Assembly (NCBI GenBank): GCA_003112755.1
Contig: BFBT01000001.1
Location: forward strand, 1,178,001 to 1,242,000
Direction: 5' to 3'
DNA: 64,000 bases
Origin: Lawsonibacter asaccharolyticus
GTDB lineage: Bacteria; Bacillota; Clostridia; Oscillospirales; Oscillospiraceae
Each line of letters starts with the position of its first letter. Positions within the stretch are counted from its first letter, which is position 1. The position numbers and the translations under genes were made by a program. The notes under the pieces are model-generated. The model was not told where the DNA came from, did not search any database, and worked only from the letters and a program-made list of their open reading frames with translations. This document shows positions 2,535-45,146 of this stretch, in pieces.

Positions 2535-3746
2535 ATGAACAATGTGGCAGGGATCGATGTTTCCAAAGGAAAGAGCATGGTATCCGTTCTCCGCCCTTTT
2601 GGAGAAGTGGTAGCAAAACCATTTTCTATTGGTCACACCGGCAGTGAACTCAAGGAGCTGGCAGACTACTTGAAAAGCCTGGACGGTGAGACACGAGTAG
2701 TCATGGAGCATACCGGACGGTACTATGAGCCGGTAGCCCGTTTTCTTCATGAGGAGGGCGTCTTTGTCAGCGCAGTCAATCCGAAGCTTATCAAAGACTA
2801 CGGGAACAACACCCTGCGAAAAGTGAAAACAGACAAGGCAGATGCCCGGAAGATTGCCCGCTATGGGCTTGACAACTGGGCAGAATTGCGCCAACATACA
2901 CCCATGGATACGATTCGAATGCAACTGAAAACGCTGAACCGGCAGCAGAGTCTATACGCTAAGACTAAGACGATGATGAAAAACAACCTCATCGCCCTTC
3001 TTGACCAGACCTATCCCGGCGTCAACGCCCTATTTGACAGCCCTGTCCGTGAGGACGGCAGCCAGAAGTGGGTGGACTTTGCCACGGCCTTTTGGCATGT
3101 GGACTGTGTGCGAAACATGAGCCTCACTGCCTTTGCCGAGCGTTACCGTAAGTGGTGTAAACGGCATGGCTACAACTTCAGCCAGAGCAAAGCCGTTGAG
3201 GTCCACACCGGAGCACAGGACCTGATTGCCATGCTCCCCAAGGACGCTCTGACCAAAACCATGGTCCGGCAGGCCATTGATGCGCTGAACGCCGTCTCTG
3301 CCTCTCTGGAACGGCTCAAGGCTGAAATGCAGGCCCTGGCAGCCCAGCTCCCGGAATACCCTGTGGTCATGGCCATGCACGGTGTAGGCGATTCTCTCGG
3401 CCCTCAGCTTATGGCGGAGCTTGGGGATGTGGCCCGGTTTACCCACCGAAACGCCATTACCGCTTTTGCGGGCGTTGACCCTGGCGCTGACCAGTCCGGC
3501 ACTCACGAGGCTAAGAGCACAAGGGTTTCCAAAAGCGGGCCGCCGGAGCTGCGCCGCGCCTTATTCCTGGTTATGGACTGCCTACTGAAAACACAGCCCC
3601 AGGATGACCCGGTATACCGTTTCATGGACAAGAAACGAGCCGAGGGCAAACCCTATCTGGTTTACATGACAGCCGGCGCCAACAAGTTCCTGCGCATCTA
3701 TTATGGCAGAGTAAAAGAATATCTGGCATCTCTGGAGGAAAATTAA
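2535..3746 (+). CDS. IS110-family transposase (DEDD N-domain, Transposase_20 C-domain)
   Basis: 403 residues, the usual family length. The N-terminal RuvC-like domain shows GIDVSKGKSMV (first acidic residue), VVMEHTGRYYEPVARFL, and VKTDKADARKIARYG (paired Asp residues). The C-terminal Transposase_20 domain shows MHGVGDSLGPQLMAELGD, AFAGVDPGADQSGTH and STRVSKSGPPELRRAL, which contains the serine used by this family. It is a serine/DEDD recombinase that inserts at short cores. The start follows GAGGAG. An identical protein is encoded at 8029-9240. Confidence 0.95.
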   Translation: MNNVAGIDVSKGKSMVSVLRPFGEVVAKPFSIGHTGSELKELADYLKSLDGETRVVMEHTGRYYEPVARFLHEEGVFVSAVNPKLIKDYGNNTLRKVKTDKADARKIARYGLDNWAELRQHTPMDTIRMQLKTLNRQQSLYAKTKTMMKNNLIALLDQTYPGVNALFDSPVREDGSQKWVDFATAFWHVDCVRNMSLTAFAERYRKWCKRHGYNFSQSKAVEVHTGAQDLIAMLPKDALTKTMVRQAIDALNAVSASLERLKAEMQALAAQLPEYPVVMAMHGVGDSLGPQLMAELGDVARFTHRNAITAFAGVDPGADQSGTHEAKSTRVSKSGPPELRRALFLVMDCLLKTQPQDDPVYRFMDKKRAEGKPYLVYMTAGANKFLRIYYGRVKEYLASLEEN

Positions 3747-3823
3747 GGAAGTATCCTTCCTTGTAGCAGAACCATATTGCCCATACGCTAAAAGCATCTT
3801 ATGACAGAAAGAGAGCGATTAAG

Positions 3824-4237
3824 ATGTTTTTAGACAATTTATCCACCTCCGTCCTCAAATTATGTGATACTCAAAAGCTCAGCTATGAAGCTGCCTCGGA
3901 ACGATGTGACCTCAGTTCCAGGTACTTTGGCGACATTGCCAGAGGCAAGACTGCGCCCACGATCCTGACGCTGGAAAAACTCTGCGTTGGCTTTGAACTG
4001 ACGCCAAATGACCTGTTGATCCCCTCAGAGTTCTGGAGAGAGATGGCCTTCCGCGAACCGATGCCAGTTACACACATCCGCTGCTTTCGATACCTCTCTG
4101 GCGTGACGGGTTTTCCTGTTTGCCCGCAATGTAGAAGGACTATGGAACGGGAATACCAGTCCTATTGTGACCGCTGTGGGCAGTGCCTTGACTGGAACAA
4201 CTTCTCTAAAGCAACGATTATTCTGCCTCAGAAGTAA
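3824..4237 (+). CDS. XRE-like HTH plus zinc-ribbon passenger protein of the IS110 element
   Basis: 137 residues. Residues about 1-65 form an HTH of XRE type (LSYEAASERCDLSSRYFGDI and LTLEKLCVGFELTPNDLL). The C-terminus has a four-cysteine zinc ribbon, CPQCRRTMEREYQSYCDRCG. The gene starts after GAAAGAGAGCG, 77 bp past the transposase stop, and lies inside the duplicated unit, so it travels with the IS. It may repress or help the transposase or act on host genes; neither is shown. Passenger genes are uncommon in IS110 elements. Confidence 0.75.
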   Translation: MFLDNLSTSVLKLCDTQKLSYEAASERCDLSSRYFGDIARGKTAPTILTLEKLCVGFELTPNDLLIPSEFWREMAFREPMPVTHIRCFRYLSGVTGFPVCPQCRRTMEREYQSYCDRCGQCLDWNNFSKATIILPQK

Positions 4238-4480: not shown

Positions 4481-4512
4481 GGGCCTGGATGCCAGTATGT
4501 GCATCCAGGCCC
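4481..4512 (-). terminator. Strong hairpin downstream of the small secreted protein gene
   Basis: Twelve-base arms GGGCCTGGATGC and GCATCCAGGCCC with an 8-base loop lie 13 bases past the stop of the gene at 4526-4924. A U-run is not obvious on the minus strand, but position and stability fit a terminator. Confidence 0.55.
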
Positions 4513-4525
4513 ATCTCTTTTGTGT

Positions 4526-4924
4526 TTAGAAGCTTTCAATCGTGGAATACGAGGTAGCGTCTTCAACAAGATCTCCATCGGAATCATAGATATCTGCGGA
4601 AATTTTTAGCCGGTAGTCATAGCCGCGGGAAACGAACTGCCCTTTATCAAAAGAAACTCTTCTTCCGCTGTCGCTCCAATCCATGATGGTCGTCCAGGAA
4701 GACCCCTTCTTCTGCTGGAGTTCCAATATCACCTCTGCGTCATATTCTGACCGCACCGTACAATCCCCTAGGCAAGAAGCGTAACCGCCGCTGCTGATTG
4801 TCAAGTCCGCTGTTAATGACCTTATGGCCGTGTATCTAGCCGATATCACAGTAGTCATTGACAGAAGCACACATAGCACCAACAATACAGTGCAGAATCT
4901 TTTTGTATTTTTTTGTTTTTTCAT
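4526..4924 (-). CDS. Small secreted protein, Ig-like, unknown function
   Basis: 132 residues. A clear signal peptide (MKKQKNTKRF then a hydrophobic core ending near VISARY) is followed by about 100 residues of alternating polar and hydrophobic strands, with one Cys pair (YASCLGDC). The arrangement SLTADLTISSGGYASC then ELQQKKGSSWTTI then SRGYDYRLKISADIYDSDG looks like a small beta-sandwich of the kind found in exported clostridial proteins. Export is well supported; function is not. It lies 72 bp downstream of the DUF4367-type gene and may be cotranscribed with it. Confidence 0.6.
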   Translation of the reverse strand: MKKQKNTKRFCTVLLVLCVLLSMTTVISARYTAIRSLTADLTISSGGYASCLGDCTVRSEYDAEVILELQQKKGSSWTTIMDWSDSGRRVSFDKGQFVSRGYDYRLKISADIYDSDGDLVEDATSYSTIESF

Positions 4925-4996
4925 TATTTGACACTCCCTTTATTTTTTGAGCTATGTTTACAGTAATAAGGTTTGAAATAGAGTATAACTTTAAAT

Positions 4997-5812
4997 TTAT
5001 GTTTCCCAATGCACCCCCTCAGCCAAGGCAATTATCTCCTCTGTTGTAGGGGCACCATCCGCTGGACCAGTTGCTGTGATCTGGATAATGAATTGATTTT
5101 CCTCATCGATCCAAAACAAGATTTGGCTGTAAAAAAGATCGGGATTTTTTATATATAATGTCGCTGGAAATCCCTGAATTTCCAAACTAATCACGGATGA
5201 ATCCTCGGAATCGATTTGTCGGGAAAACCCCCCAGAATATCTGATTACATCCACATCAATGGCATGTCTTGCTCCATCATACAGTGAAAGTCCACGTGTT
5301 CCATTTGTTCTGGACCAACCATCATCGCCAACTTCATAGCCTTCCGGAATCCACTCAAAGCCTACTCCATAGTAATAGGTCCAATCTTCGTTCTGTTCCG
5401 CCTCTTCGGGGGTCGGATCTCGTGGAGCGACTTCGTCTTCCCCTTTGAACGTGAGTTCGGTGTACCGGTCATAAGTATTGATCACGGCGTTAAGCACACC
5501 CAGCCGAAACTGTTCCGATGCCGCCATTGCGGTCGTCAGCAGCACCACCATCAGCATAACGGCAACAGAGACCCGACGCACGATCTTCCATGTCACCTTT
5601 CCAAGTTTTTTCGCCCTTTTTCGATTAAATTCCCGGCGAATGGTTGCCTCACAGCGCCGCCGTGCGGACTCCGGCACCTCTGCTGCCGGATCTGCCTTCA
5701 ACCGCTCATTCAGCTCCAGGGCCTGCTTGCCCTCCTCCTCGGCCACTGAATCCATCAACAGGGCAAACAGAGCATCTTCATACTGCTCCGTCAGCCGCTC
5801 GTGGTTAGTCAT
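4997..5812 (-). CDS. Membrane-anchored DUF4367-type protein, probable sigma-factor partner
   Basis: 271 residues. About 80 charged cytoplasmic residues precede one transmembrane helix (about residues 83-98, VSVAVMLMVVLLTTAMAA). An extracellular domain follows with the DUF4367-like pattern GFEWIPEGYEV ... SLEIQGFPATLYIKNPD ... LFWIDEENQFIIQI. The start overlaps the stop of the upstream sigma gene by 8 bp, so the two are translationally coupled. Such a membrane protein next to an ECF sigma factor is commonly its regulator or anti-sigma factor. That role is inferred from topology and context. Confidence 0.7.
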   Translation of the reverse strand: MTNHERLTEQYEDALFALLMDSVAEEEGKQALELNERLKADPAAEVPESARRRCEATIRREFNRKRAKKLGKVTWKIVRRVSVAVMLMVVLLTTAMAASEQFRLGVLNAVINTYDRYTELTFKGEDEVAPRDPTPEEAEQNEDWTYYYGVGFEWIPEGYEVGDDGWSRTNGTRGLSLYDGARHAIDVDVIRYSGGFSRQIDSEDSSVISLEIQGFPATLYIKNPDLFYSQILFWIDEENQFIIQITATGPADGAPTTEEIIALAEGVHWET

Positions 5813-9317: not shown

Positions 9318-9731
9318 ATGTTTTTAGACAATTTATCCACCTCCGTCCTCAAATTATGTGATACTCAAAAGCTCAGCTATGAAGCTGCCTCGGAACGATG
9401 TGACCTCAGTTCCAGGTACTTTGGCGACATTGCCAGAGGCAAGACTGCGCCCACGATCCTGACGCTGGAAAAACTCTGCGTTGGCTTTGAACTGACGCCA
9501 AATGACCTGTTGATCCCCTCAGAGTTCTGGAGAGAGATGGCCTTCCGCGAACCGATGCCAGTTACACACATCCGCTGCTTTCGATACCTCTCTGGCGTGA
9601 CGGGTTTTCCTGTTTGCCCGCAATGTAGAAGGACTATGGAACGGGAATACCAGTCCTATTGTGACCGCTGTGGGCAGTGCCTTGACTGGAACAACTTCTC
9701 TAAAGCAACGATTATTCTGCCTCAGAAGTAA
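9318..9731 (+). CDS. XRE-like HTH plus zinc-ribbon passenger, copy 2
   Basis: Identical in all 137 residues to the protein at 3824-4237, again 77 bp after the transposase. Its presence in both copies shows that it is part of the mobile unit and not a chance neighbour. Confidence 0.78.
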   Translation: MFLDNLSTSVLKLCDTQKLSYEAASERCDLSSRYFGDIARGKTAPTILTLEKLCVGFELTPNDLLIPSEFWREMAFREPMPVTHIRCFRYLSGVTGFPVCPQCRRTMEREYQSYCDRCGQCLDWNNFSKATIILPQK

Positions 9732-9854
9732 TGTGCACTGTTACATACCTGACCATCCGGCCAGCGTCCTTTACCTGCTGGCCGCTTTTGGCATGGCCTT
9801 TTTCTCTCCTCAATTTTGCTTTATTTCCCTATTGACTTTTTATTTGCAGACTTC

Positions 9855-10243
9855 TCCGTAAGTAAATCCAGCTGAAATGTCTGGTCCAATTGCATATCCT
9901 GGCTCTGGTCGCTGCCTGTTAAATACGCAGCTTCCTCTTTAACTGTTATTTCTTCCAAGCTAATGATAGTGGCAATTGGATTGTGGTGCTTCTTGTATAT
10001 CTTAAAGCAACTATAATTCATGGCATTTTTGATATACTGGACCACTTTACCGTCATCTTGACTTCTCAACCTTTCAGGACGGAACCGTTTGATCAGTTCA
10101 ATGAAAGCAACCACCATCTCCTGTTCTCCATCTTCTATATGAAGCTGACGGCCACACTTTCGAATCAGTGGTCTAAAACGATAAATCAATGCCTCTAATT
10201 CCTTATTATCTCTCTGCGCTAGTGTAATGCTTTCAATCAGCAT
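9855..10243 (-). pseudogene. 5' half of UviA/TcdR-like sigma gene cut by IS110 copy 2
   Basis: From ATG 10243 (GGGAG 8 bases upstream) the frame gives MLIESITLAQRDNKELEALI, then YRFRPLIRKCGRQLHIEDGE and YIKNAMNYSCFKIYKKHH, ending at the IS edge with FQLDLLTE. The pattern of a short N-terminus, RFxPLI, DGEQEMVVAFIELIKRF and a conserved YIKNAM stretch resembles UviA/TcdR/BotR-type sigma factors and phage-like sigma proteins. The readable extension into the IS (to 9821) is artificial. The subgroup assignment is an inference from pattern only. Confidence 0.78.
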
Positions 10244-10768
10244 ATCCCCCACTCCCAGAACGAATCTGGAAATGAAAGAGAGAATGCCGCTTAGAAAGTA
10301 AACCTCAGTTTAAAAATCTTTTATGGTGCTGCTTTATCCTTCCCATACTAAAAGACGCTTTTTTTAAAATTTGCAACATCGCAGACTTGAAATGGTTATA
10401 ATTCTGCCCTCCCAACATTTTTAAGAAGGCTTCCGAAAATCTTTCGGAAGCCTTCTTTATAGATAAACGTCAATTTTTATTAGGTGCAACATAGTTAACT
10501 ATTTTTTCATTTTTTGCTGTTACACCGTAAAATCACGTTGCATTTTTCAATTAAATTCCGTCTTATAAGACAGAGGAAACCCAAAGAATAACTTGTTATA
10601 CTTTTGGGGGTGATTCCCATGACGTAGTACTTTCCATGCCCCGAATAGGCACCCATGCATTCTCATCTATCCCAATAAGTCTAAGCGTATCTAAAGCAAG
10701 AAGCTGAATCAATGACAGGCAACAGGCACAGACTTTGACGGCGCAAATTAGAAAGGGGCAAAATTTCC
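10244..10768. other. Noncoding stretch before the C39-like gene
   Basis: No convincing gene was seen. It holds one strong hairpin (10423-10457), AT-rich promoter-like sequence, and a palindrome GTCTTATAAGAC at about 10560 that could be a regulator site for the downstream gene. Confidence 0.4.
10423..10457. terminator. Long hairpin, bidirectional terminator
   Basis: Sixteen-base arms (AAGAAGGCTTCCGAAA and its complement) with a 3-base loop are flanked by A and T runs. It isolates the broken sigma gene from the C39-like gene. Confidence 0.7.
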
Positions 10769-11488
10769 ATGAAAAAAAGATCTCGCATCATTCCCGTTTT
10801 ATGCACACTTTTGGTCGCCACTTTTTTGTTTGGAACTGTATCCGCAACGAACATCAGTATGATTGGCAATACAGTTACTGAACCGCCTCTCACCCAAGAG
10901 GAACTGGAGCATATCAGTGAATGTAACGCGCTGATTGAACAGCAACTTGCCCGCGATAACCTCACCAGGGCGATCTATAATAACTATCTTTCTATGAGCG
11001 TGATCACCCAGGAAAATGGGTATTACTGTGGACCAGCGACTGCTTGTATGGTTGCAAAGACACTGGGCCTGGGCACCTATACCCAGAAAGAGATGGCTTC
11101 CCTGCTTGGGACCACGACCAGCGGAACTAGCGGTGCACAGATCTGCAATACGTTAAACAGCCTGCTCTCTAAAACTTCGGATACACGGCGTTTCCAGCGT
11201 GTCACAATTTCCACCGCTGCCCTGGAAACTAGTGTTCGGTCGAGCCTCAGAAATGATTTTCCGCTTACACTCAACGTGAAAGAAATGCCCAACTACACAT
11301 CTGGCAGCGGGCACTTTATTGCTGTGAAGGGTTATTACTTCAACACATCGACCGATTTTAAGACCATCACAATTTGCGATCCTCATCCCACTTATTCCGG
11401 CACGTACACCTATACCCTCGAAGAAATGGAGACCGCAGTCGAATCGAGCAACGGCTATTACAACCGTCTGGATGCCAGCACAGTGTAA
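10769..11488 (+). CDS. Secreted C39-like (papain-fold) cysteine peptidase
   Basis: 239 residues. The signal peptide (KKRSRIIPVLCTLLVATFLF, cut near VSA-TN) is followed by a short linker and a Peptidase_C39-like domain. The catalytic Cys lies in NGYYCGPATACMVA (about residue 91), the His in GSGHFIAVKGYYF, and the Asp/Asn position in ITICDPHPTYSG. Such domains cleave peptides outside the cell or trim leader peptides, but no ABC transporter is attached, so this is a free exported enzyme. AAAGGGGC precedes the ATG. Confidence 0.78.
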   Translation: MKKRSRIIPVLCTLLVATFLFGTVSATNISMIGNTVTEPPLTQEELEHISECNALIEQQLARDNLTRAIYNNYLSMSVITQENGYYCGPATACMVAKTLGLGTYTQKEMASLLGTTTSGTSGAQICNTLNSLLSKTSDTRRFQRVTISTAALETSVRSSLRNDFPLTLNVKEMPNYTSGSGHFIAVKGYYFNTSTDFKTITICDPHPTYSGTYTYTLEEMETAVESSNGYYNRLDASTV

Positions 11489-11497
11489 ATTGCTTTT

Positions 11498-11534
11498 GGG
11501 AGTAGCAACAGGAATTTCTCCTGTTGCTACTCCC
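11498..11534 (+). terminator. Terminator of the C39-like gene
   Basis: GGGAGTAGCAACAG and CTGTTGCTACTCCC arms lie 10 bases past the stop codon. Confidence 0.7.
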
Positions 11535-11654
11535 TCTGCCAGATAAGTCTGGTTAACCCCTCACATAAATCTGTAAAAATATTGGAATAGCTTTTATTTG
11601 AGAATTATACCTATTTGTCATTGAAAGGTCTTTGGCATTTAGAGAGGTGATGTT

Positions 11655-12854
11655 ATGATTAAAAAGTCCATATTCTTTATACTCCTTGCGCTCTTGTTGA
11701 TAATGAGTGGATGCGGGACCAACAGCCAAGCCCCTAACAGCTCCGCCAGCACCTCTGCTCCGACTGAAAGCTCAGGTTCCGCGGGGAGCACGCAGCCGGA
11801 CCAGGAGGGATTCCTGACAAATCAGAACGAACCTCTGACTCATGCGTCTGCACTGGGCCTGTATGAGAGCTTAGATGTATCAGAGGACCAGAGGGTCGAG
11901 ATACTGGACATGAACGAGGACTACATATTTCTCAGTGTAAATTATGACGCTTTTGAAATTGAGCTCACCCGCGAGGTCGGATTTACATACATGAGCGAGA
12001 AATTAGTTCTCCTGGAATATCCGAATATGACTCTTGTTTCAGAAATCCTACTCCCATCTGCGGTCTACTGTACAAGCGGGGCTCTTTTTGATGATGGCTA
12101 TTCATACTCCACTATCACAATATCTGATTCCATCGAATCTGATTATTCTATCTATTATCATTCAAATCAATCGGAAGCTCCTGACGCGCTGATTGATCAT
12201 GGTAAATGCTATGCAGTTGATTTTAACATTCCTTCTCTGCTTACGATGGACTCGGGCAAAATCGTGTACAGCTATACCAATTTGGAGAACGGCACACTGG
12301 GAATCAGCACAATTTTGCCTGGTGGAAAATTGAGATCCAACTTTGAATACGCTTTTACAGATGATGGCCTTGGATTCCTGGGAAATTTGAAAACCAACGG
12401 CAACCAGTTTATGATATTTCTTGAACTGGATGGGGTCAGAGGTCTTCTGCTCGGTGATACGCAGTCCGATTGCAGCTTCCTTCCCAGTGCTGAGGGCGAA
12501 CAGATTTTTGACTATTGCCTGCTAGAATCCACCTTTTTGTGTTCTCTGAGACGTACAGATATCAACTCTATCGAGTATTTAGAAGAACGGGATTTTACTG
12601 GCAGTACCATAAAATCTATGAAATATCCATCGGTTTACCGAATGGTTTCCGATGGACAGGACTGTGCCCTGGGAATCAACGGGAAGTATCAAATCATTGC
12701 GATTCGTGTTGAGGACCAAACAGCAGCGATCTATCGAGACACAGAAATGACTCTGCCCGTGCTGTTTTACGAAATCAGCGACGGAGCCTTCGGAGCTCAT
12801 TTCTATAACGCTGTTTATGGTCCAAGATCTCTGAGCACATTCACCTTCTTCTGA
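11655..12854 (+). CDS. Lipoprotein of unknown function
   Basis: 399 residues. A short signal peptide ends in a good lipobox (IMSGC, Cys about residue 20) and is followed by a Ser/Thr/Pro linker. The remaining 340 residues are rich in beta-type alternation (for example LLLGDTQSDCSFLPSAEG, IAIRVEDQTAAIYRD), suggesting a propeller-like or sandwich domain, but no family was recognised. GAGAGGTGATG precedes the ATG. It has its own terminator downstream. Surface location is confident; function is not. Confidence 0.7.
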   Translation: MIKKSIFFILLALLLIMSGCGTNSQAPNSSASTSAPTESSGSAGSTQPDQEGFLTNQNEPLTHASALGLYESLDVSEDQRVEILDMNEDYIFLSVNYDAFEIELTREVGFTYMSEKLVLLEYPNMTLVSEILLPSAVYCTSGALFDDGYSYSTITISDSIESDYSIYYHSNQSEAPDALIDHGKCYAVDFNIPSLLTMDSGKIVYSYTNLENGTLGISTILPGGKLRSNFEYAFTDDGLGFLGNLKTNGNQFMIFLELDGVRGLLLGDTQSDCSFLPSAEGEQIFDYCLLESTFLCSLRRTDINSIEYLEERDFTGSTIKSMKYPSVYRMVSDGQDCALGINGKYQIIAIRVEDQTAAIYRDTEMTLPVLFYEISDGAFGAHFYNAVYGPRSLSTFTFF

Positions 12855-13250: not shown

Positions 13251-13691
13251 TCAGCTGTTGCTTCCGTACCAGACGATGTGGCCGAAGGCACTGCTGTATC
13301 CTTTCAAATCATACTTTCCATTCTTGACAATACTGTCGTAGATAGTATCTCCGCTCATATTCCCTTCAACAGTAATAATCTGATCATCCGTGATTTCGGA
13401 GATGATCCCAATGTGTGTGATATTATCATTTCCTTTCGGATCAATAAAAGCCAAATCCCCCTCCTTTGGGAAGTTGCTCCCAACAAACGCAAAGTTTCCG
13501 TTGAGGCCCCAAAGTTTAGAGGCAGTATTGGAGCTACCAAAATTCATATCAGCCTTGGCTCCACACTGGCGCACAAACCATGCACACCAATCTACACCGG
13601 GATCGCTCGTGTCAAAATGCTTGACACATTCTTTCAGATTCATGCCCACACATTCTTCCGCAACACTAATGAGAGTATCAATGGATGCCAT
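13251..13691 (-). CDS. CHAP/NlpC-like cell-wall hydrolase without signal peptide
   Basis: 146 residues, a single domain. The catalytic Cys is in VDWCAWFVRQCG (about residue 36), the His in THIGIISEI (about 93), and a polar third residue in VEGNMSGD. This is the CHAP/amidase fold that cuts peptidoglycan peptides or amide bonds. There is no signal peptide or anchor, so the enzyme would need a holin or lysis to reach the wall, as phage endolysins do. A TcdE-like holin gene is at 16593. AAGGAGG lies 6 bases before the ATG, just outside a structured leader. Confidence 0.8.
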   Translation of the reverse strand: MASIDTLISVAEECVGMNLKECVKHFDTSDPGVDWCAWFVRQCGAKADMNFGSSNTASKLWGLNGNFAFVGSNFPKEGDLAFIDPKGNDNITHIGIISEITDDQIITVEGNMSGDTIYDSIVKNGKYDLKGYSSAFGHIVWYGSNS

Positions 13692-13710
13692 ATTAGTTCC
13701 TCCTTACAAA

Positions 13711-13793
13711 ATTTGTGAGCCGGATCACTAAATTGGACGTAACGAGACAACGCGGTGTCCAAACACGTTGTCCCGAATAATCCGGTTACAAAT
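13711..13793 (-). ncRNA. Structured leader element B upstream of the CHAP gene
   Basis: On the minus strand the 83-nt element folds into an outer stem AUUUGU/ACAAAU, a second stem CCGGAU/AUCCGG and an inner hairpin GACAACG/CGUUGUC. The hairpin loop carries UUGGAC, complementary to GUCCAA downstream (pseudoknot). The same architecture with different stem sequences is found at 15061-15141. The ribosome site follows 9 bases after the element. No known riboswitch class was recognised. Confidence 0.5.
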
Positions 13794-13883
13794 ATAAAAG
13801 ACCATTTGAACAGAAAGAAAGTAAACCTTTTTCCAGGTGCTTTGCAGAATATAATAAAACGTGAGGGGATAATGACCTATAAA

Positions 13884-13915
13884 AAGGGTGACCACATATG
13901 TGATCACCCTTCGGA
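13884..13915 (-). terminator. Terminator of the leaderless 364-residue protein gene
   Basis: AAGGGTGAtcACATATGTggTCACCCTT followed on the minus strand by TTTAT, 27 bases past the stop at 13942. Confidence 0.7.
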
Positions 13916-13941
13916 ATGACTGCTCTCTAATTTTAGTATGC

Positions 13942-15036
13942 TTAATCCACACTCCACTCATGACTAGAGGCACCAACGCCATAGGAGGCAACAATGTGCT
14001 GCCAGTCAAAGGAACAAGTGTCATTTGGCGCAAGTGTAATCTCACACCACCGCCAGGTCTTTAAGCCATCAAGTAAATTAGCTGCCTGTACATTCCCGCC
14101 AAGATTCATTACCTGACAAGTACCAGCAGATCCTACATACCCGTGGATGGTATATGTCTTACTGGTATTATTTTTGAATGTGATCGTATTATAGTTGTGC
14201 GCACACCAGTTCCCCAGATTGTTTAAATCGTCATTGGAGGAATTGGGGTCAGCCGTTAACCCACCCTGAATCATCTTGATAGGAATCATCTCATTGCTGT
14301 TTCCATATCCACCCTGAGCATTAGAGGTATAGATATACGGCCGAGACAGCAAATCAGATACATATTTTGTCCCATGAGTAAATGTCAGATAATAGCCTGT
14401 TCCTTTCCCACTATAAACGGCGGGATAGGTATGATTGATGGATTTATCGGCACTGTACGACAAGCCATAGGGGAACGCCACTGCATTACCATCCACAGCG
14501 CTAGTAGATTGGTATGCATATACGGTTACTACGACACTTCCGCTGGTTTCAAACCGACACATCCCGGTAAACGGGGTCGAAGAATCTGCGGGTATCGCCT
14601 GAGAAGTCGCGATCCATGCCGCCTTGCCTGAAGCAATGGTAACGGAGGTCTTTTTCGAAGAGAAAAAGTTTTTGACCGCATTAATTGATTTGTACCATCC
14701 ACTGCTGTCACCATAATTTTGGCATGTCACGGTAACGGACTTAGAAGAGCTATTATACGCCTGTATGCCCACATAAAGTCTCTTTCCAGTGTAATTTGTG
14801 TGGGAGTAAAAGACTTCCGCCGTGCCAGAGATAGTCTGTTGGTTTAAAAAATATCCATTTTCAGCCAGAGCAAGGCCCTTCCCATTTTTTCCGATGGCTT
14901 CTGGATAATTGGAATAAATCCAGGGGTTGCTATTTCTCGTAACAGTAAGGCGTGTCCGTTTCTCAGTGTCAATCGTTTTAGAGGTAGAAAGATTGCTCCC
15001 TGACGGAGATAGCATTTTTGCGCTTACAGTTGCCAT
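13942..15036 (-). CDS. Leaderless beta-rich protein, candidate exported cargo
   Basis: 364 residues, unrecognised. Composition is extreme for a cytoplasmic protein: very rich in Ser, Thr, Asn, Tyr and Gly, few charged clusters, with alternating strands (SGTAEVFYSHTNYTGKRLYV, SGSVVVTVYAYQSTSAV). No signal peptide, transmembrane helix or lipobox is present. Residues 1-25 read MATVSAKMLSPSGSNLS and onward. It sits next to the CHAP hydrolase, shares the same type of structured leader and is near a holin gene, so export through the holin route is a plausible inference. GAAAGGA precedes the ATG and is paired in the leader helix. Confidence 0.55.
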   Translation of the reverse strand: MATVSAKMLSPSGSNLSTSKTIDTEKRTRLTVTRNSNPWIYSNYPEAIGKNGKGLALAENGYFLNQQTISGTAEVFYSHTNYTGKRLYVGIQAYNSSSKSVTVTCQNYGDSSGWYKSINAVKNFFSSKKTSVTIASGKAAWIATSQAIPADSSTPFTGMCRFETSGSVVVTVYAYQSTSAVDGNAVAFPYGLSYSADKSINHTYPAVYSGKGTGYYLTFTHGTKYVSDLLSRPYIYTSNAQGGYGNSNEMIPIKMIQGGLTADPNSSNDDLNNLGNWCAHNYNTITFKNNTSKTYTIHGYVGSAGTCQVMNLGGNVQAANLLDGLKTWRWCEITLAPNDTCSFDWQHIVASYGVGASSHEWSVD

Positions 15037-15044
15037 TTTTAAAA

Positions 15045-15150
15045 TTCCTTTCTGTATGTTATTTGTGGCCTAGCAGCACCTTGGACTTAACGAAGGATTA
15101 CGGTGTCCACCCGTGAATCCTCCGGCTACCGGGCTACACATACAGAAAGA
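15045..15150 (-). ncRNA. Structured leader element A upstream of the 364-residue protein
   Basis: Core 15061-15141. Stems on the minus strand are UGUG/CACA, GCC/GGC plus GUAGC/GCUGC, and hairpin GGAUU-ACGG/CCGU-AAUCC. The loop's UGGAC is complementary to downstream GUCCA. An extra perfect 12-bp helix (15138-15149 with 15048-15059) closes the element and buries AGAAAGGA, the ribosome site of the next gene. Elements A and B keep UGGACACCG, CGUUA-GUCCAA and CACAAAU but differ in the stems with compensating changes. Confidence 0.55.
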
Positions 15151-15227
15151 GAATTGAAAATCTGAATTGTAAACTCAAGTAAAAAGTGCCTGTTGCAAAA
15201 TGGAATTTCGAAAAATTGGTCCAAAGG

Positions 15228-15273
15228 AAAAGTTGCTGAGAACCGTCATTCAGGCGGTTCTCAGCAACTTTTT
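15228..15273. terminator. Long bidirectional terminator
   Basis: Arms AAAAGTTGCTGAGAACCG and CGGTTCTCAGCAACTTTT are flanked by A and T runs, 60 bp past the stop of the stalk-domain gene. Confidence 0.75.
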
Positions 15274-15332: not shown

Positions 15333-16412
15333 TCATTGGATCATCTCCAGCAGCTCACTCACATTCAGGCAGAGGTCCGGCCTCTCCAAGTCAAACAGGG
15401 GCACTCCGCCCAGTTCCGTCTGGAATACCTGTCCATTCCGCACCAGGCGCAGAGGGACAGAGAGATAGGCCAGCGCACAGCCGGGATACATATCCTTCTG
15501 CGGCATGATGTGCTTTCTCAGGGTCAGGTGGTCCCCTTCTCGCTGAAATACCCGTCCCCCCCCCTGCACGATTTGACTGAGGAAATACACATCCAAAGCA
15601 GGTTCCCGCAAGACGAGCCCTCCCGCTTCCACAGAAAGCCGATAGTCCAGAACTATGTCCTGGACCGCACTCATAGAGGTGAGTTCCCCGAAATCGCAGG
15701 AGCACGCCGATGCGTCCCAGTGGGCCACCGGGTCTTCCCCCGGGACCTGGGAGGGGAGTTGATATTGGACAATTCCGGCAGACCATGTCCCGAAGGCAGG
15801 GAGGATCGTCTTGACTGTGCAGGAGAGCCCGTTCACCTCCAGGGGATCGCCGGGATGCAGGCTGGAGAAACGGACCGTCCTGGTCTCCCCGTCCCACTCT
15901 GTGCGGCAGAGGGAGCGAGAATATCCGATTAGAAAGTTGGGATTACCCAAGATGAATCCATGCATTTCGACCTTCCCCACCTCGGACAGAGGGATCATCA
16001 TCCACCCGCCAATGTTATAGACATGCTCCAGCTCATTGCCATTGAAGAGCACCCTGATGTCAGTGGCATAGTAGCTGCCCCGGACCGTTCCGGGAACCTC
16101 CCGGGTGATGTCAGGCTCCGGCATGCGCTCCGGCCGCTGGGCCGACGTGACCGTTACCCACCGGGTCTCCGGGTCCCACTCCACCTGAAAGCCGTATCCG
16201 GCCAGATCGCTCACCGAGACAACGGTGGTCCCGCCGATGTTGTAGGAGGCAATGGGGGCCCCGTCTATATAGGTAACGATGTCGGTGGTATAGACGCTGC
16301 CCAGCCGGGTCCCCACAGGGACCTCCTCTTCCGCATCCTCCGCAAAGGAGGGGGCTGCCAAGAGGCAGGACAAGAGCAGCACAGCACACAGAAATCCAAG
16401 TTTTTGTTTCAT
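15333..16412 (-). CDS. Secreted protein with two stalk (copper amine oxidase N-like) repeats
   Basis: 359 residues. The signal peptide ends near PSFAED. Two copies of a stalk-type repeat follow: VGTRLGSVYTTDIVTYIDG with YNIGGTTVVSVSDLAGYGF (about residues 33-90), and TVRGSYYATDIRVLFNG with YNIGGWMMIPLSEV (about 108-150). Such domains are common at the N-terminus of clostridial exported proteins and are usually structural. The C-terminal 190 residues are unrecognised, apart from a late motif resembling another strand-rich repeat. GAAAGGAG precedes the ATG. It is divergent from the holin gene. Confidence 0.68.
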   Translation of the reverse strand: MKQKLGFLCAVLLLSCLLAAPSFAEDAEEEVPVGTRLGSVYTTDIVTYIDGAPIASYNIGGTTVVSVSDLAGYGFQVEWDPETRWVTVTSAQRPERMPEPDITREVPGTVRGSYYATDIRVLFNGNELEHVYNIGGWMMIPLSEVGKVEMHGFILGNPNFLIGYSRSLCRTEWDGETRTVRFSSLHPGDPLEVNGLSCTVKTILPAFGTWSAGIVQYQLPSQVPGEDPVAHWDASACSCDFGELTSMSAVQDIVLDYRLSVEAGGLVLREPALDVYFLSQIVQGGGRVFQREGDHLTLRKHIMPQKDMYPGCALAYLSVPLRLVRNGQVFQTELGGVPLFDLERPDLCLNVSELLEMIQ

Positions 16413-16592
16413 AGACGGCTCCTTTCAAAAATATCAGACAGGCCAAATAGTTTTCTATATAGTAATACGATACACCACACCAAAATGCAACGGTTTTGTT
16501 AAAAATTCGGATTTACATTTTACTCGGAGGTATCTCCTTATAGTTTGCCAGAAAAAAATATGGGCAAGCAAATAAATGAAAGGATCTTTTGT

Positions 16593-16985
16593 ATGTTAAA
16601 CATTATTTTAAACTCTCTCGGGAAAATCATTTCATTTTTCCTGGGGGAACTGGACGGGCTCTTATACGCTTTGGTAATCTTCGTTATTTTAGATTATATT
16701 ACAGGTGTCTGTGTTGCAATTCAAACCAAAAAGCTGTCCAGCAATATTGGTGCGAAAGGAATTGCGAAAAAAGTGGCAATTTTCTTGATGATCTCAGTCG
16801 CACATGTGGCGGATCAGTATCTTGTAGAATCCACGGATGTTCTTCGATCTGTAACAACGCTTTTTTATCTGTCAAATGAAGGCATCAGCATTTTTGAAAA
16901 TGTCTGCAAGATTGGTCTTCCCTTGCCCGGTCGGCTCAAAAATCTTTTAGAAAAATTTAAAGACATCAAAAATCAGGCGGAGTAA
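16593..16985 (+). CDS. TcdE/phage-type holin (holin family 4)
   Basis: 131 residues from ATG 16593 (AAAGGAT 8 bases upstream). A longer TTG reading from 16545 has no ribosome site. Three hydrophobic segments are visible (IIFFLG region, LDGLLYALVIFVILDYITGV, VAIFLMISVAHVADQYLV). The family's central DYITGV and the pattern LSSNIGAKGIAKKVAIFLM are typical of Bacteriophage_holin_4, which includes TcdE and UtxA. It forms membrane pores that release endolysin or large toxins. A truncated second copy of its 3' end is at 35019-35151. Confidence 0.82.
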   Translation: MLNIILNSLGKIISFFLGELDGLLYALVIFVILDYITGVCVAIQTKKLSSNIGAKGIAKKVAIFLMISVAHVADQYLVESTDVLRSVTTLFYLSNEGISIFENVCKIGLPLPGRLKNLLEKFKDIKNQAE

Positions 16986-17170: not shown

Positions 17171-18829
17171 TCATTCATTATCGGGAAGACACTCTCCCGA
17201 CAACGACAACAGATCACGGAAGGGAATCTGCTCTCCGCCTTCCAGAATCATGACCTCTCTATAAGCGTCAATTTTGCGGACCGCCCCGGTGGCAATCAAG
17301 TAATTTCCGCCCTCTTTTTTTCCGTCTGGCCGAAACCAGGTCACCGTCACCGCTGGATGCTGATCCAGCAATCCGGCCAGCACACGGAGCTGCTTGTCCA
17401 GTTCCTCCTGGACACCTTCATCCAGCTCTTTTTGCAGCGTGGTTAACCGCCCCGCCTCCTGCAGGACCGCATCGTAACCAGTCAAGGCGGTAAAGGGAGA
17501 AAACAGGTCCATCTGCTCACTGGCATCTACTTCTGGCACTTTCCGCTCCGACATCACATGGTTGGCCGTGATATTGAGTCGGCGGAACAGTAGTCCCGTG
17601 TCCACAATCCTGTGAAAAAGCGGATCGGCGGCATTCTGAATCTTTCGTGTGGATGAAGTGTATTTCTCGATATTTTTTCCATGGCTGTGCTTCGGCACAA
17701 ATCTGCCGTATCGGTCCCTCTTGATCTTGCCCCGATACCGACTGAGGCGTACCGGATCTCGGATATTCTCAATATCATATCCCGCGGTCAGGGTCAGCTG
17801 ATCTGTTGCAAGTCCCTTTCCACCAGCTCCAGGGCCAGCGTATCCGCCATCTCACGTATCACAATGCGGGCTTTCTCAGCACTGTATGGGCATTGGAGGA
17901 CCTGACCTGATCCAATGCTGTTGGATTCCGGCCGATAGGCTTTGATGTCTGATATCGTGCAGGGCTCCCACCCCCAGGCGTGATCGATCAGCAGCTCCGC
18001 ATTGATCCCGAACAGCTTATAGAGCAGGTCCTCATTGTGCAGGTCACCCGGGCCGCCGAGAGAGCAGCGCGCGATGTCCCCCATCGTATAAATGCCGTGC
18101 TCCGCCAGCCTTTTCGCATACCCCGGCCCCACCCGCCAAAAATCTGTAATAGGGCGATGGGACCACAGGAGCTGCCGGTAGCTCAGCTCATTCAGCCTCG
18201 CGATGCGGACACCGTCTTTATCCGGTCGGATATGTTTGGAGACGATGTCCAGCGCAGCTTTGCAGAGGTAGAGGTTGGGACCGATCCCCGCGGTGGCGGT
18301 AATTCCAGTGGTGTCAAGTACATCTTTGACCACCCGCTTTGCGAATTCCCACGGGGCCAGGCCGGTAGTTTGAAGATAGGGCGTGATGTCCATGAACACC
18401 TCGCCGATGGAATAGGGGTGGATATCTTCCGGCGCCACATGGCGGAGGTACACCTGATATATGCGGGCGCTCCACTCCATGTAGCGGGCCATGCGCGGCG
18501 GGGCCACGATATAATCCAGCTCCAGCGCAGGATTGGCTCTCAGCTCCAGATCATTACTGGAAGAGCCGGAAAAGACGTGGCTGGGAACCCGCTGCCGTCG
18601 CTGAGCGTTGATCTCCCGGACCTTCTGGATCACTTCAAAGAGCCGGGCCCGCCCCAGGATTCCATACGCTTTCAGCGCAGGCGTGACGGCCAGACAGATG
18701 GTTTTCTCCGTGCGGGTCAGATCTGCTACCACAAGGTTGGTGGTCATGGGGTCCAGCCCCCCGCTCCACGCACTCCACCGAGGCGTAGAAGCTCTTCAGA
18801 TCCACCGCGAGATATGTTCTTGCTTCCAT
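17171..18829 (-). pseudogene. Decayed Y-family DNA polymerase fused to YolD remnant
   Basis: Compared with the intact copy at 35337-37279, this copy has one extra base in a C-run near 18760, one missing base near 17815, and a deletion joining polymerase residues EQMDLF to YolD residues SPF. The catalytic motif SIDEVF reads SIGEVF (about residue 136), removing a metal-binding Asp. Readable pieces are 18635-18829, 17794-18747 and 17171-17698. It can no longer make an active translesion polymerase. Confidence 0.88.
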
Positions 18830-45046: not shown

Positions 45047-45146
45047 TGAAGACAATCGATGGAGCGCCGGATGCGGTGAAAGTCGCATGTCCGGTGTGAA
45101 GTGGGGGAAAAGGTGGAGATAATATCAAAACCTTACCTATCACTAT
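45047..45146 (+). ncRNA. Group II intron domains V and VI (3' end)
   Basis: GAGCGCCGGATGCGGTGAAA followed by GTCGCATGTCCGGTGTG folds into the domain V hairpin. An A-bulged purine-rich hairpin (GGTGGAGATAATATCAAAACC) follows as domain VI, ending near CTAT. The downstream codons resume the coupling-protein frame (AETLLYTALIGYIYYEAP), so the intron had inserted in that gene. Confidence 0.75.

What the first reader, a model, noticed from the sequence alone, without database searches (positions are those of the whole stretch)
13711..15150. Two covarying pseudoknot leaders before a CHAP hydrolase and a leaderless protein
Elements at 13711-13793 and 15061-15141 keep UGGACACCG, CGUUA-GUCCAA and CACAAAU but have different, compensating stem sequences. 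In both, the hairpin loop can pair with GUCCAA. Element A is closed by a perfect 12-bp helix that hides the ribosome site. This looks like a cis-regulatory RNA class that I do not recognise.
Basis: partly seen in the sequence, partly recalled or inferred. Interest (0 to 1): 0.75.

Follow-up and report, generated by a model that had tools for sequence, protein, structure and literature searches.

The report
Pseudoknot mRNA leaders beside holin genes
Two genes in a bacterial genome, one for a cell-wall-cutting enzyme and one for a protein that seems to lack an export signal, begin with the same folded RNA shape, which also turns up in two other DNA records and each time follows a promoter-like sequence of the type used for bacteriocin and toxin genes.

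Summary
Both elements (minus strand, 13711-13785 and 15061-15134) share a 10-bp P1 stacked on a 12-bp P2 whose loop pairs with GUCC(AA) 3' of P2. A covariance model from the first copy plus a relative in a same-genus genome (G326) recovers the second (E 1.8e-6) and a fourth copy in MT836933.1 (E 8.4e-6). Across the four (38-58% identity) 93.7% of 111 cells pair and 20 of 28 pairs change on both sides. Two copies precede CHAP lysin genes, two precede genes of one 364-aa family. No Rfam match.

New here: all four lie 11-12 nt after the end of a TTTAC(A/T)-N16-18-CTCTTT-like promoter, the -35 type of TcdR/UviA (group 5) sigma factors. The exact pattern occurs four times in the 4.28-Mb genome, all at two sigma/holin loci. 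So the pseudoknot is probably the 5' end of these mRNAs. The 12-bp helix that hides the ribosome site (on the 15061 copy, also on the G326 copy) has its 5' arm in the promoter, so it would form only in read-through RNA, as with phage T4 lysozyme. What the pseudoknot does is unproven: no transcript data, four copies.

The parts
13711..13785 (-). Element A: P1 (10 bp), P2 (12 bp), loop-GUCCAA pseudoknot, 3' CACAAAT; leader of the CHAP gene
   Evidence: R2 88.2 bits (A is in the model)
15061..15134 (-). Element B: same fold, leader of the 364-aa gene
   Evidence: found by model R1, which did not contain it: 37.0 bits, E 1.8e-6
13797..13802 (-). predicted -10 (GTCTTT) of promoter A; ends 11 nt before element A
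13820..13825 (-). predicted -35 (TTTACT) of promoter A, 17-bp spacing
15146..15151 (-). predicted -10 (CTCTTT) of promoter B; ends 11 nt before element B
15168..15173 (-). predicted -35 (TTTACA) of promoter B, 16-bp spacing
15138..15149 (-). 5' arm of the 12-bp outer helix of B; overlaps the predicted -10
15048..15059 (-). 3' arm of the 12-bp outer helix of B; covers the ribosome binding site
13251..13691 (-). CHAP peptidoglycan hydrolase (146 aa), endolysin-like; no signal peptide by eye
   Evidence: Pfam CHAP 3.2e-10; PHROG endolysin 4.7e-9
13942..15036 (-). 364-aa protein, no signal peptide by eye, no family match; beta-rich model
9821..10252 (-). sigma-factor-like ORF (143 aa), weak match to sigma70-ECF (E 0.0045), no region 4; TTTACT-N16-CTCTTT upstream at 10275-10302
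16593..16985 (+). holin (ORF open from 16545), toxin secretion/phage lysis holin family; TTTACA-N16-CTCCTT upstream at 16512-16539 (one mismatch)
   Evidence: Pfam Phage_holin_4_1 4.3e-41; TIGR01593 2.6e-27
13884..13911 (-). terminator-like hairpin with T tail between the 364-aa gene and promoter A
   Evidence: seen by eye; not listed by the scan
15230..15271 (.). terminator-like hairpin between the 359-aa gene and promoter B
   Evidence: seen by eye; not listed by the scan

Best explanation
The two elements are copies of one small cis-acting RNA: a P1-P2 stack with a loop-to-3'-strand pseudoknot that forms the first ~80 nt of mRNAs started at TcdR/UviA-type promoters of a holin/endolysin/cargo gene cluster. 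It acts after transcription starts: no U tract follows it and it ends 3-9 nt before the Shine-Dalgarno-like sequence. My leading guess is that, as a 5'-terminal structure, it protects the mRNA and keeps the ribosome site open, so that cargo and endolysin are made in bulk; the sigma and holin mRNAs have no such leader. In copies B and C (weakly D) a further upstream segment is complementary to the ribosome site. It lies in or before the promoter, so only read-through transcripts carry it and are silenced, as with the lysozyme gene e of phage T4. Shown: the structure by covariation, the position before gene starts, the fixed spacing to a promoter-like sequence. Inferred: promoter use, start site, gate, and the role of the pseudoknot.
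For: Covariation: 93.7% of 111 cells paired, 20 of 28 pairs changed on both sides, 0 of 500 shuffles as high on any measure, slid controls 33-43%; one pair of the pseudoknot itself changes on both sides (GGAC/GUCC to GGGC/GCCC in C). B and D were found by a model that did not contain them. Two lysin genes and two 364-aa-family genes follow. Promoter: the -10 ends 11, 11, 12, 11 nt before P1 in A, B, C, D; GTTTAC stands in 4 of 4 upstream stretches against 64 of 3329 windows (the 3329 include the elements' own surroundings). In the whole genome TTTACW-N15-TCTCTTT is exact at 4 places: sigma 1, element B, holin 2, sigma 2. Sigma 2 has a region-4 ORF (Sigma70_r4 4.3e-12) with the letters SRQ, which PMC4031146 offers as a marker of the TcdR group (passages). 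MT836933 has the exact promoter before its holin and before element D. Gate: duplex with the ribosome site B -20.7 and C -23.1 kcal/mol, 0 of 1000 shuffles each; of 55 long ORFs only the gene of B itself passes 0.005. T4 gene e precedent: PMC3014915 passages.
Against: Only four copies in three DNA sources; the alignment was fitted to a structure that I drew. Element A has no gate (717 of 1000 shuffles as good) and D is borderline (18 of 1000, 49 of 1000). The genes of C and D do not pass in the cruder 55-ORF test. The computed closing of the ribosome site in read-through RNA is not special to gated genes: sigma 1 and sigma 2 show it too (0.59 to 0.16, 0.56 to 0.08 unpaired). The promoters of A and C are imperfect (17 of 3329 windows score as high). 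With one mismatch allowed the promoter pattern gives 19 places in the genome against 7 for the reversed control, so many one-mismatch places are chance. Sigma 1 lacks region 4, sigma 2 is split over two frames, and no homologue of sigma 1 was found in G326, so the sigma that reads these promoters is not identified. For C the nested minimum-energy fold has no P2 but pairs the pseudoknot strands otherwise. Holin 2 has a long leader (87 nt) without the element. No RNA data.
Confidence: 0.5

Rival explanations
1. A riboswitch: the pseudoknot core binds a small molecule or ion and controls translation of cargo and lysin, for example to release them only in a given metabolic state.
For: Compact pseudoknot inside a closing stem, with unpaired letters kept in all four copies (loop A, UUA linker, 3' ACAAA); directly before ribosome sites; shared by different genes of one cluster.
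Against: Few invariant unpaired letters for an aptamer; no second, mutually exclusive fold common to the four copies seen in the folds; very narrow distribution.
Confidence: 0.17
2. A protein-binding operator: a product of the cluster, such as the cargo, or a host RNA-binding protein binds the pseudoknot and represses or activates translation, as T4 gp32 does on its own pseudoknot leader (recalled).
For: The same leader on two different genes of one cluster suggests a common trans-acting factor; the conserved ACAAA lies outside the stems next to the ribosome site.
Against: No RNA-binding protein identified in the cluster; in G326 the element stands on a 5,966-base contig on which no sigma, holin or lysin gene was noticed.
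Confidence: 0.17
3. A DNA-level feature (recombination or protein site) that merely looks like an RNA fold.
For: Mobile-element genes lie nearby by eye; the 5' part abuts a promoter.
Against: Fixed position at gene starts and behind promoter-like sequences in 4 of 4 copies; 10 G-U cells against 4 A-C cells favour the mRNA strand, modestly; no further copy in the genome.
Confidence: 0.06
4. The outer 12-bp helix is a true part of the leader in the working transcript, and the element is a thermosensor or switch that opens and closes it.
For: Perfect 12-bp helix over the ribosome site in B and a helix at least as long in C with different letters on both arms.
Against: The 5' arm lies in the predicted promoter in B and C; A lacks it; holin 2, without the pseudoknot, has an equally strong one.
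Confidence: 0.1

Closest known systems
Phage T4 gene e (lysozyme), soc, 49, I-TevI leaders (PMC3014915, passages seen)
   Same: Longer transcripts hide the ribosome site of a lysis gene in a helix; late promoters just upstream give transcripts that lack the 5' part of that helix and are translated.
   Different: Here a pseudoknot module sits between promoter and ribosome site, the promoter is TcdR/UviA-like, and the gate is clear in B, C and holin 2 only; no transcript has been mapped.
TcdR/UviA/BotR group-5 sigma regulons (PMC4031146, PMC4597214, PMC5311115, passages seen)
   Same: -35 TTTACA; a sigma region 4 with SRQ; genes of secreted or released proteins.
   Different: Sigma genes here incomplete or split, cargo family unrelated to named ones by the searches done, leaders with a conserved pseudoknot. 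The -10 CTCTTT is recalled: PMC4031146, PMC4597214 and PMC5311115 hold no such string.
UviA-UviB-endolysin-Bcn5 bacteriocin clusters and holin-dependent secretion (PMC9527704, passages seen)
   Same: Sigma factor, holin, lysin and a protein without signal peptide together.
   Different: CHAP lysin and a 364-aa protein family; no secretion shown here.
T4 gene 32 pseudoknot (named in a passage of PMC3014915; details recalled)
   Same: Pseudoknot in a 5' leader.
   Different: No likeness in sequence or helix lengths was tested; a binding protein is unknown here.

Membership tests
any described RNA family (Rfam 15, 4227 models) | match at the gathering score | tested here: not met
   no match at the elements; with E up to 10 on 13600-15250, 4 matches, none overlapping 13711-13793 or 15061-15141
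TcdR-type promoter | -35 TTTACA | tested here: met
   TTTACA in B and D; TTTACT, one letter off, in A and C
TcdR-type promoter | transcription needs a TcdR-type sigma | not testable with these tools
   needs in vitro transcription or a sigma deletion
TcdR/UviA group-5 sigma factor (sigma 2, L368) | region 4.2 with SRQ | tested here: met
   Sigma70_r4 4.3e-12, letters CSRQSVNQ; the gene is split over two frames
TcdR/UviA group-5 sigma factor (sigma 1, window 9821-10252) | region 4.2 | tested here: not met
   no region-4 match in the 143-aa ORF
T4 gene e-type gate | upstream segment complementary to the ribosome site | tested here: inconclusive
   B and C 0 of 1000 shuffles, D 18 of 1000 (49 of 1000 with other borders), A 717 of 1000; holin 2 0 of 1000; sigma 1, sigma 2, holin 1 and the MT836933 holin not
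T4 gene e-type gate | own promoter starts 3' of the 5' arm | tested here: inconclusive
   predicted positions only; no start site mapped
riboswitch | ligand-dependent change | not testable with these tools
   no experiment

The most novel reading that the evidence does not exclude
A two-layer expression lock for holin-dependent protein release: a dedicated sigma factor starts the mRNA exactly at a 5'-terminal pseudoknot that senses a signal (ligand or protein) and times cargo and endolysin against the holin, while read-through RNA is silenced by a helix whose 5' arm is the promoter itself.
Probability: 0.2. Interest if true: 0.85.

Novelty: new variant of a known kind. Interest (0 to 1): 0.6.

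Why it matters
Clusters of sigma factor, holin, lysin and leaderless cargo are usually discussed in terms of transcription (my reading of the passages seen). A conserved pseudoknot at the 5' end of just the cargo and lysin mRNAs, plus a read-through gate, would add a post-transcriptional step to such a release system, and the promoter-plus-element signature gives a way to find its targets in other genomes.

Tried and rejected
DNA-pattern scans gave no further copies. All these loci were screened with R2: (L003-L180 without L165; 177 loci) gave 0 matches at E 1; (39 loci, L165 among them) gave the two known copies, a 14.3-bit antisense match over the copy in L186 and 13.4 bits in L200; (80 and 40 loci) gave at best 19.3 bits (L308, E 0.11). 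I looked at four weak ones (L291, L254, L244, L311) and saw no member; the L308 stretch printed empty by a slicing slip and was not looked at.

Protein routes. No 364-aa relative in viral contigs or phages; no DNA match of the region in plasmids (the 364-aa protein was not searched there). CHAP: one phage record, MT836933; one distant relative in viral contigs, L184, without a copy; only the own genome among 330 family genomes at 1e-15; none with the two-row alignment. Of the 5 other phage records with a relative of the MT836933 helicase-like protein I fetched 3 (L371-L373), plus one phage with a related holin (L374) and a Flavonifractor plautii plasmid with a related lectin domain (L370): best extra match 11.0 bits. 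The distant 364-aa relative in G215 has no copy by eye, R1 or R2.

R1 missed element B in the own genome under the strict filters, so that family search is insensitive; R2 finds both. My first structure count had the pseudoknot shifted by one column and was redone. The fold of the 364-aa protein gave no usable relative (Foldseek TM by query length at most 0.21 in the 50 rows shown).

Literature: the only paper holding both TcdR and pseudoknot is on the raiA-motif RNA (listing and abstract start). Listings (12 of 18 shown; 9 of 9; 12 of 18; 10 of 44) show nothing like this leader in titles and abstract starts. Absence from print is claimed only for these searches of this library.

Full report
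What is there. On the minus strand, 13711-13785 (A) and 15061-15134 (B) carry TGGACACCG-N8-CGTTA-N-GTCCA, exact twice in the window with 0 expected from 100 shuffles; a looser form occurs twice in the 4.28-Mb genome, at the same places. A stands before a CHAP hydrolase gene, B before a 364-aa gene without a Pfam, NCBIfam or PHROG match. Stretches with flanks fold more stably than shuffles: z -4.0 and -5.4; for the cores of A, B, C, D z is -3.3, -3.1, -4.1, -2.1. The perfect 12-bp helix over the ribosome site belongs to B.

A third and a fourth copy. The 364-aa family is rare: 2 of 300 family genomes with the single protein, the own one and a 30% relative, and 2 of 64 same-genus genomes with the alignment. 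The same-genus relative (G326, contig of 5,966 bases, L186) has a gene of the family at 4483-5556, with a leader of the same fold but other letters (C, L186:4384-4458). A covariance model R1 from A and C finds B (37.0 bits, E 1.8e-6) and a new copy D in MT836933.1, 'Bacteriophage sp.' from human faeces (34.4 bits, E 8.4e-6, L183:8173-8245), in 97,592 bases. D lies directly before a gene with a ricin-type lectin and a CHAP domain; its CHAP part is 57% identical to the window's. So the element precedes lysin genes twice and 364-aa-family genes twice.

Structure. P1 is 10 bp, P2 12 bp (one extra unpaired base in B), and the P2 loop (UU)GGxC pairs with GxCC(AA) after a UUA-N linker. In the alignment of the four (A6), 93.7% of 111 cells pair, 20 of 28 pairs have changes on both sides, and no shuffle of 500 reaches any of the five measures; slid versions pair in 33-43% of cells. 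The alignment was fitted to this structure, which leans the count towards it; B and D, however, were not in the model that found them. Pairwise identity is 38-58%; unpaired letters kept in all four include the A after GGxC, UUA and ACAAA; 10 cells are G-U and 4 are A-C. Caveat: the nested minimum-energy fold of C lacks P2.

Distribution. R2 (from the four copies) hits 2 of 64 same-genus genomes and only the own genome among 394 order and 391 class genomes. R1 hits only the own genome among 400 family genomes and misses B there, so these searches, run with stricter filters, lose weak members. R2 finds no member in the loci from five pattern scans; the best weak match, L308 at E 0.11, was not looked at.

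Promoter. All four copies have GTTTAC about 40 nt upstream; 64 of 3329 windows of 70 nt have it (a pool that includes the elements' own surroundings). The best TTTAC(A/T)-N16-18-CTCTTT-like match ends 11, 11, 12 and 11 nt before P1 in A, B, C and D. B and D match exactly; A and C have TTTACT and one change in the -10, and 17 of the 3329 windows score as high. In the whole genome TTTACW-N15-TCTCTTT is exact at four places: before the sigma-like ORF 9821-10252, before element B, and on both sides of a second locus (L368) with a divergent holin and sigma gene. With one mismatch allowed there are 19 places against 7 for the reversed pattern, so one-mismatch places alone prove little; among them are the one before the window's holin and one before an ORF without signal peptide by eye that weakly resembles a phosphodiester glycosidase (8.2e-5, below the Pfam cut-off). 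MT836933 has the promoter exactly before its holin and before D. A sigma-70 consensus scan lists nothing upstream of A or B on their strand. TTTACA is the -35 of TcdR-dependent promoters (PMC4597214, PMC5311115, PMC4031146; passages). The -10 CTCTTT I recall; those papers do not hold that string. The second sigma's region 4 (Sigma70_r4 4.3e-12) has the SRQ letters that PMC4031146 offers as a marker of the group. Sigma 1 lacks region 4, sigma 2 is split over two frames, and none of 50 same-genus genomes, G326 among them, shows a homologue of sigma 1. Which sigma reads these promoters is therefore open.

Read-through gate. If transcription starts 6-8 nt after the -10, the mRNA begins at the 5' end of the pseudoknot element; the 5' arm of the 12-bp helix of B overlaps its -10, and that of C lies around its -35 and spacer. 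The arms would then be present only in read-through RNA. Duplex energies of the 75 nt upstream with the ribosome site: B -20.7 and C -23.1 (0 of 1000 shuffles each), D -14.0 (18 of 1000), A -9.3 (717 of 1000). With other borders D is 49 of 1000; holin 2, which has no pseudoknot, passes (0 of 1000); sigma 1, sigma 2, holin 1 and the MT836933 holin do not. Among 55 long ORFs, taken from their first ATG, only the gene of B passes 0.005 and 2 pass 0.02; the genes of C and D do not pass with these cruder borders. Mean unpaired probability around the start codon is 0.38, 0.63, 0.78, 0.65 (A-D) for RNAs from the predicted start and 0.36, 0.19, 0.18, 0.25 for read-through RNAs; but the two sigma leaders show a like drop without passing the duplex test, so this measure is not specific. 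T4 gene e works by such a gate (PMC3014915 passages). A, without a gate, has a terminator-like hairpin just upstream (13884-13911, by eye).

Function. No U tract follows the elements and they end 3-9 nt before the Shine-Dalgarno-like sequence (read), so control of translation or mRNA stability is likelier than attenuation. Distances from predicted start to start codon are 93-104 nt for the four genes with the element, 24-46 nt for sigma 1, sigma 2, holin 1 and the MT836933 holin, and 87 nt for holin 2, which has a long leader without the element. I favour a 5'-terminal protective and expression-setting role, with ligand or protein sensing as open rivals. None of this is tested by experiment.

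Cargo. The protein search for the 364-aa family returned 15 proteins, the window's own among them. There is no solved relative by sequence and a beta-rich model of mean pLDDT 83.8 without a convincing structural match. Holin-dependent export of proteins without signal peptide next to sigma and lysin genes is described for other clostridia (PMC9527704 passages); applying it here is inference.

Noticed in passing
L368 (G000:C1:1870000-1882000) 3651-4118 - and 4553-5135 +: Second sigma/holin locus in the same genome: divergent holin and sigma genes, each behind an exact TTTACT-N16-CTCTTT promoter; the sigma is split over two frames; the holin's start region is complementary to a segment that contains its own -35.
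   Followed up: partly
L357 1579-2316 + (G000:C1 near 1176616): ORF without signal peptide by eye, weakly like phosphodiester glycosidase, behind a one-mismatch promoter of the same type: possible further regulon member, no pseudoknot seen by eye.
   Followed up: partly
L370 (NZ_CP095095.1) 9351-11804 -: Flavonifractor plautii plasmid: a lectin-domain gene and a lysozyme gene separated by an IS3 element, with a sigma-70 family gene about 1.3 kb away; no R2 match.
   Followed up: partly
window 17171-18829 -: Pol Y-like gene (IMS 4.1e-18 for 17794-18747) that looks spread over several overlapping ORFs, while L186:506-2026 shows one open frame for what looks by eye like its relative.
   Followed up: no
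window 45062-45146 +: Group II intron match in Rfam (58.7 bits).
   Followed up: no
window 15333-16412 - and L186:3266-4339 +: Proteins that look alike and secreted by eye, without a Pfam match, directly upstream of the 364-aa-family gene in both genomes.
   Followed up: no
window 10769-11488 +: C39-like peptidase domain protein with an N-terminal signal-like stretch by eye, in the same cluster.
   Followed up: no
L183 (MT836933.1): Record labelled bacteriophage carries a helicase-like gene (by eye), a sigma-like ORF, a holin and the lectin-CHAP lysin; no capsid gene was noticed by eye.
   Followed up: partly
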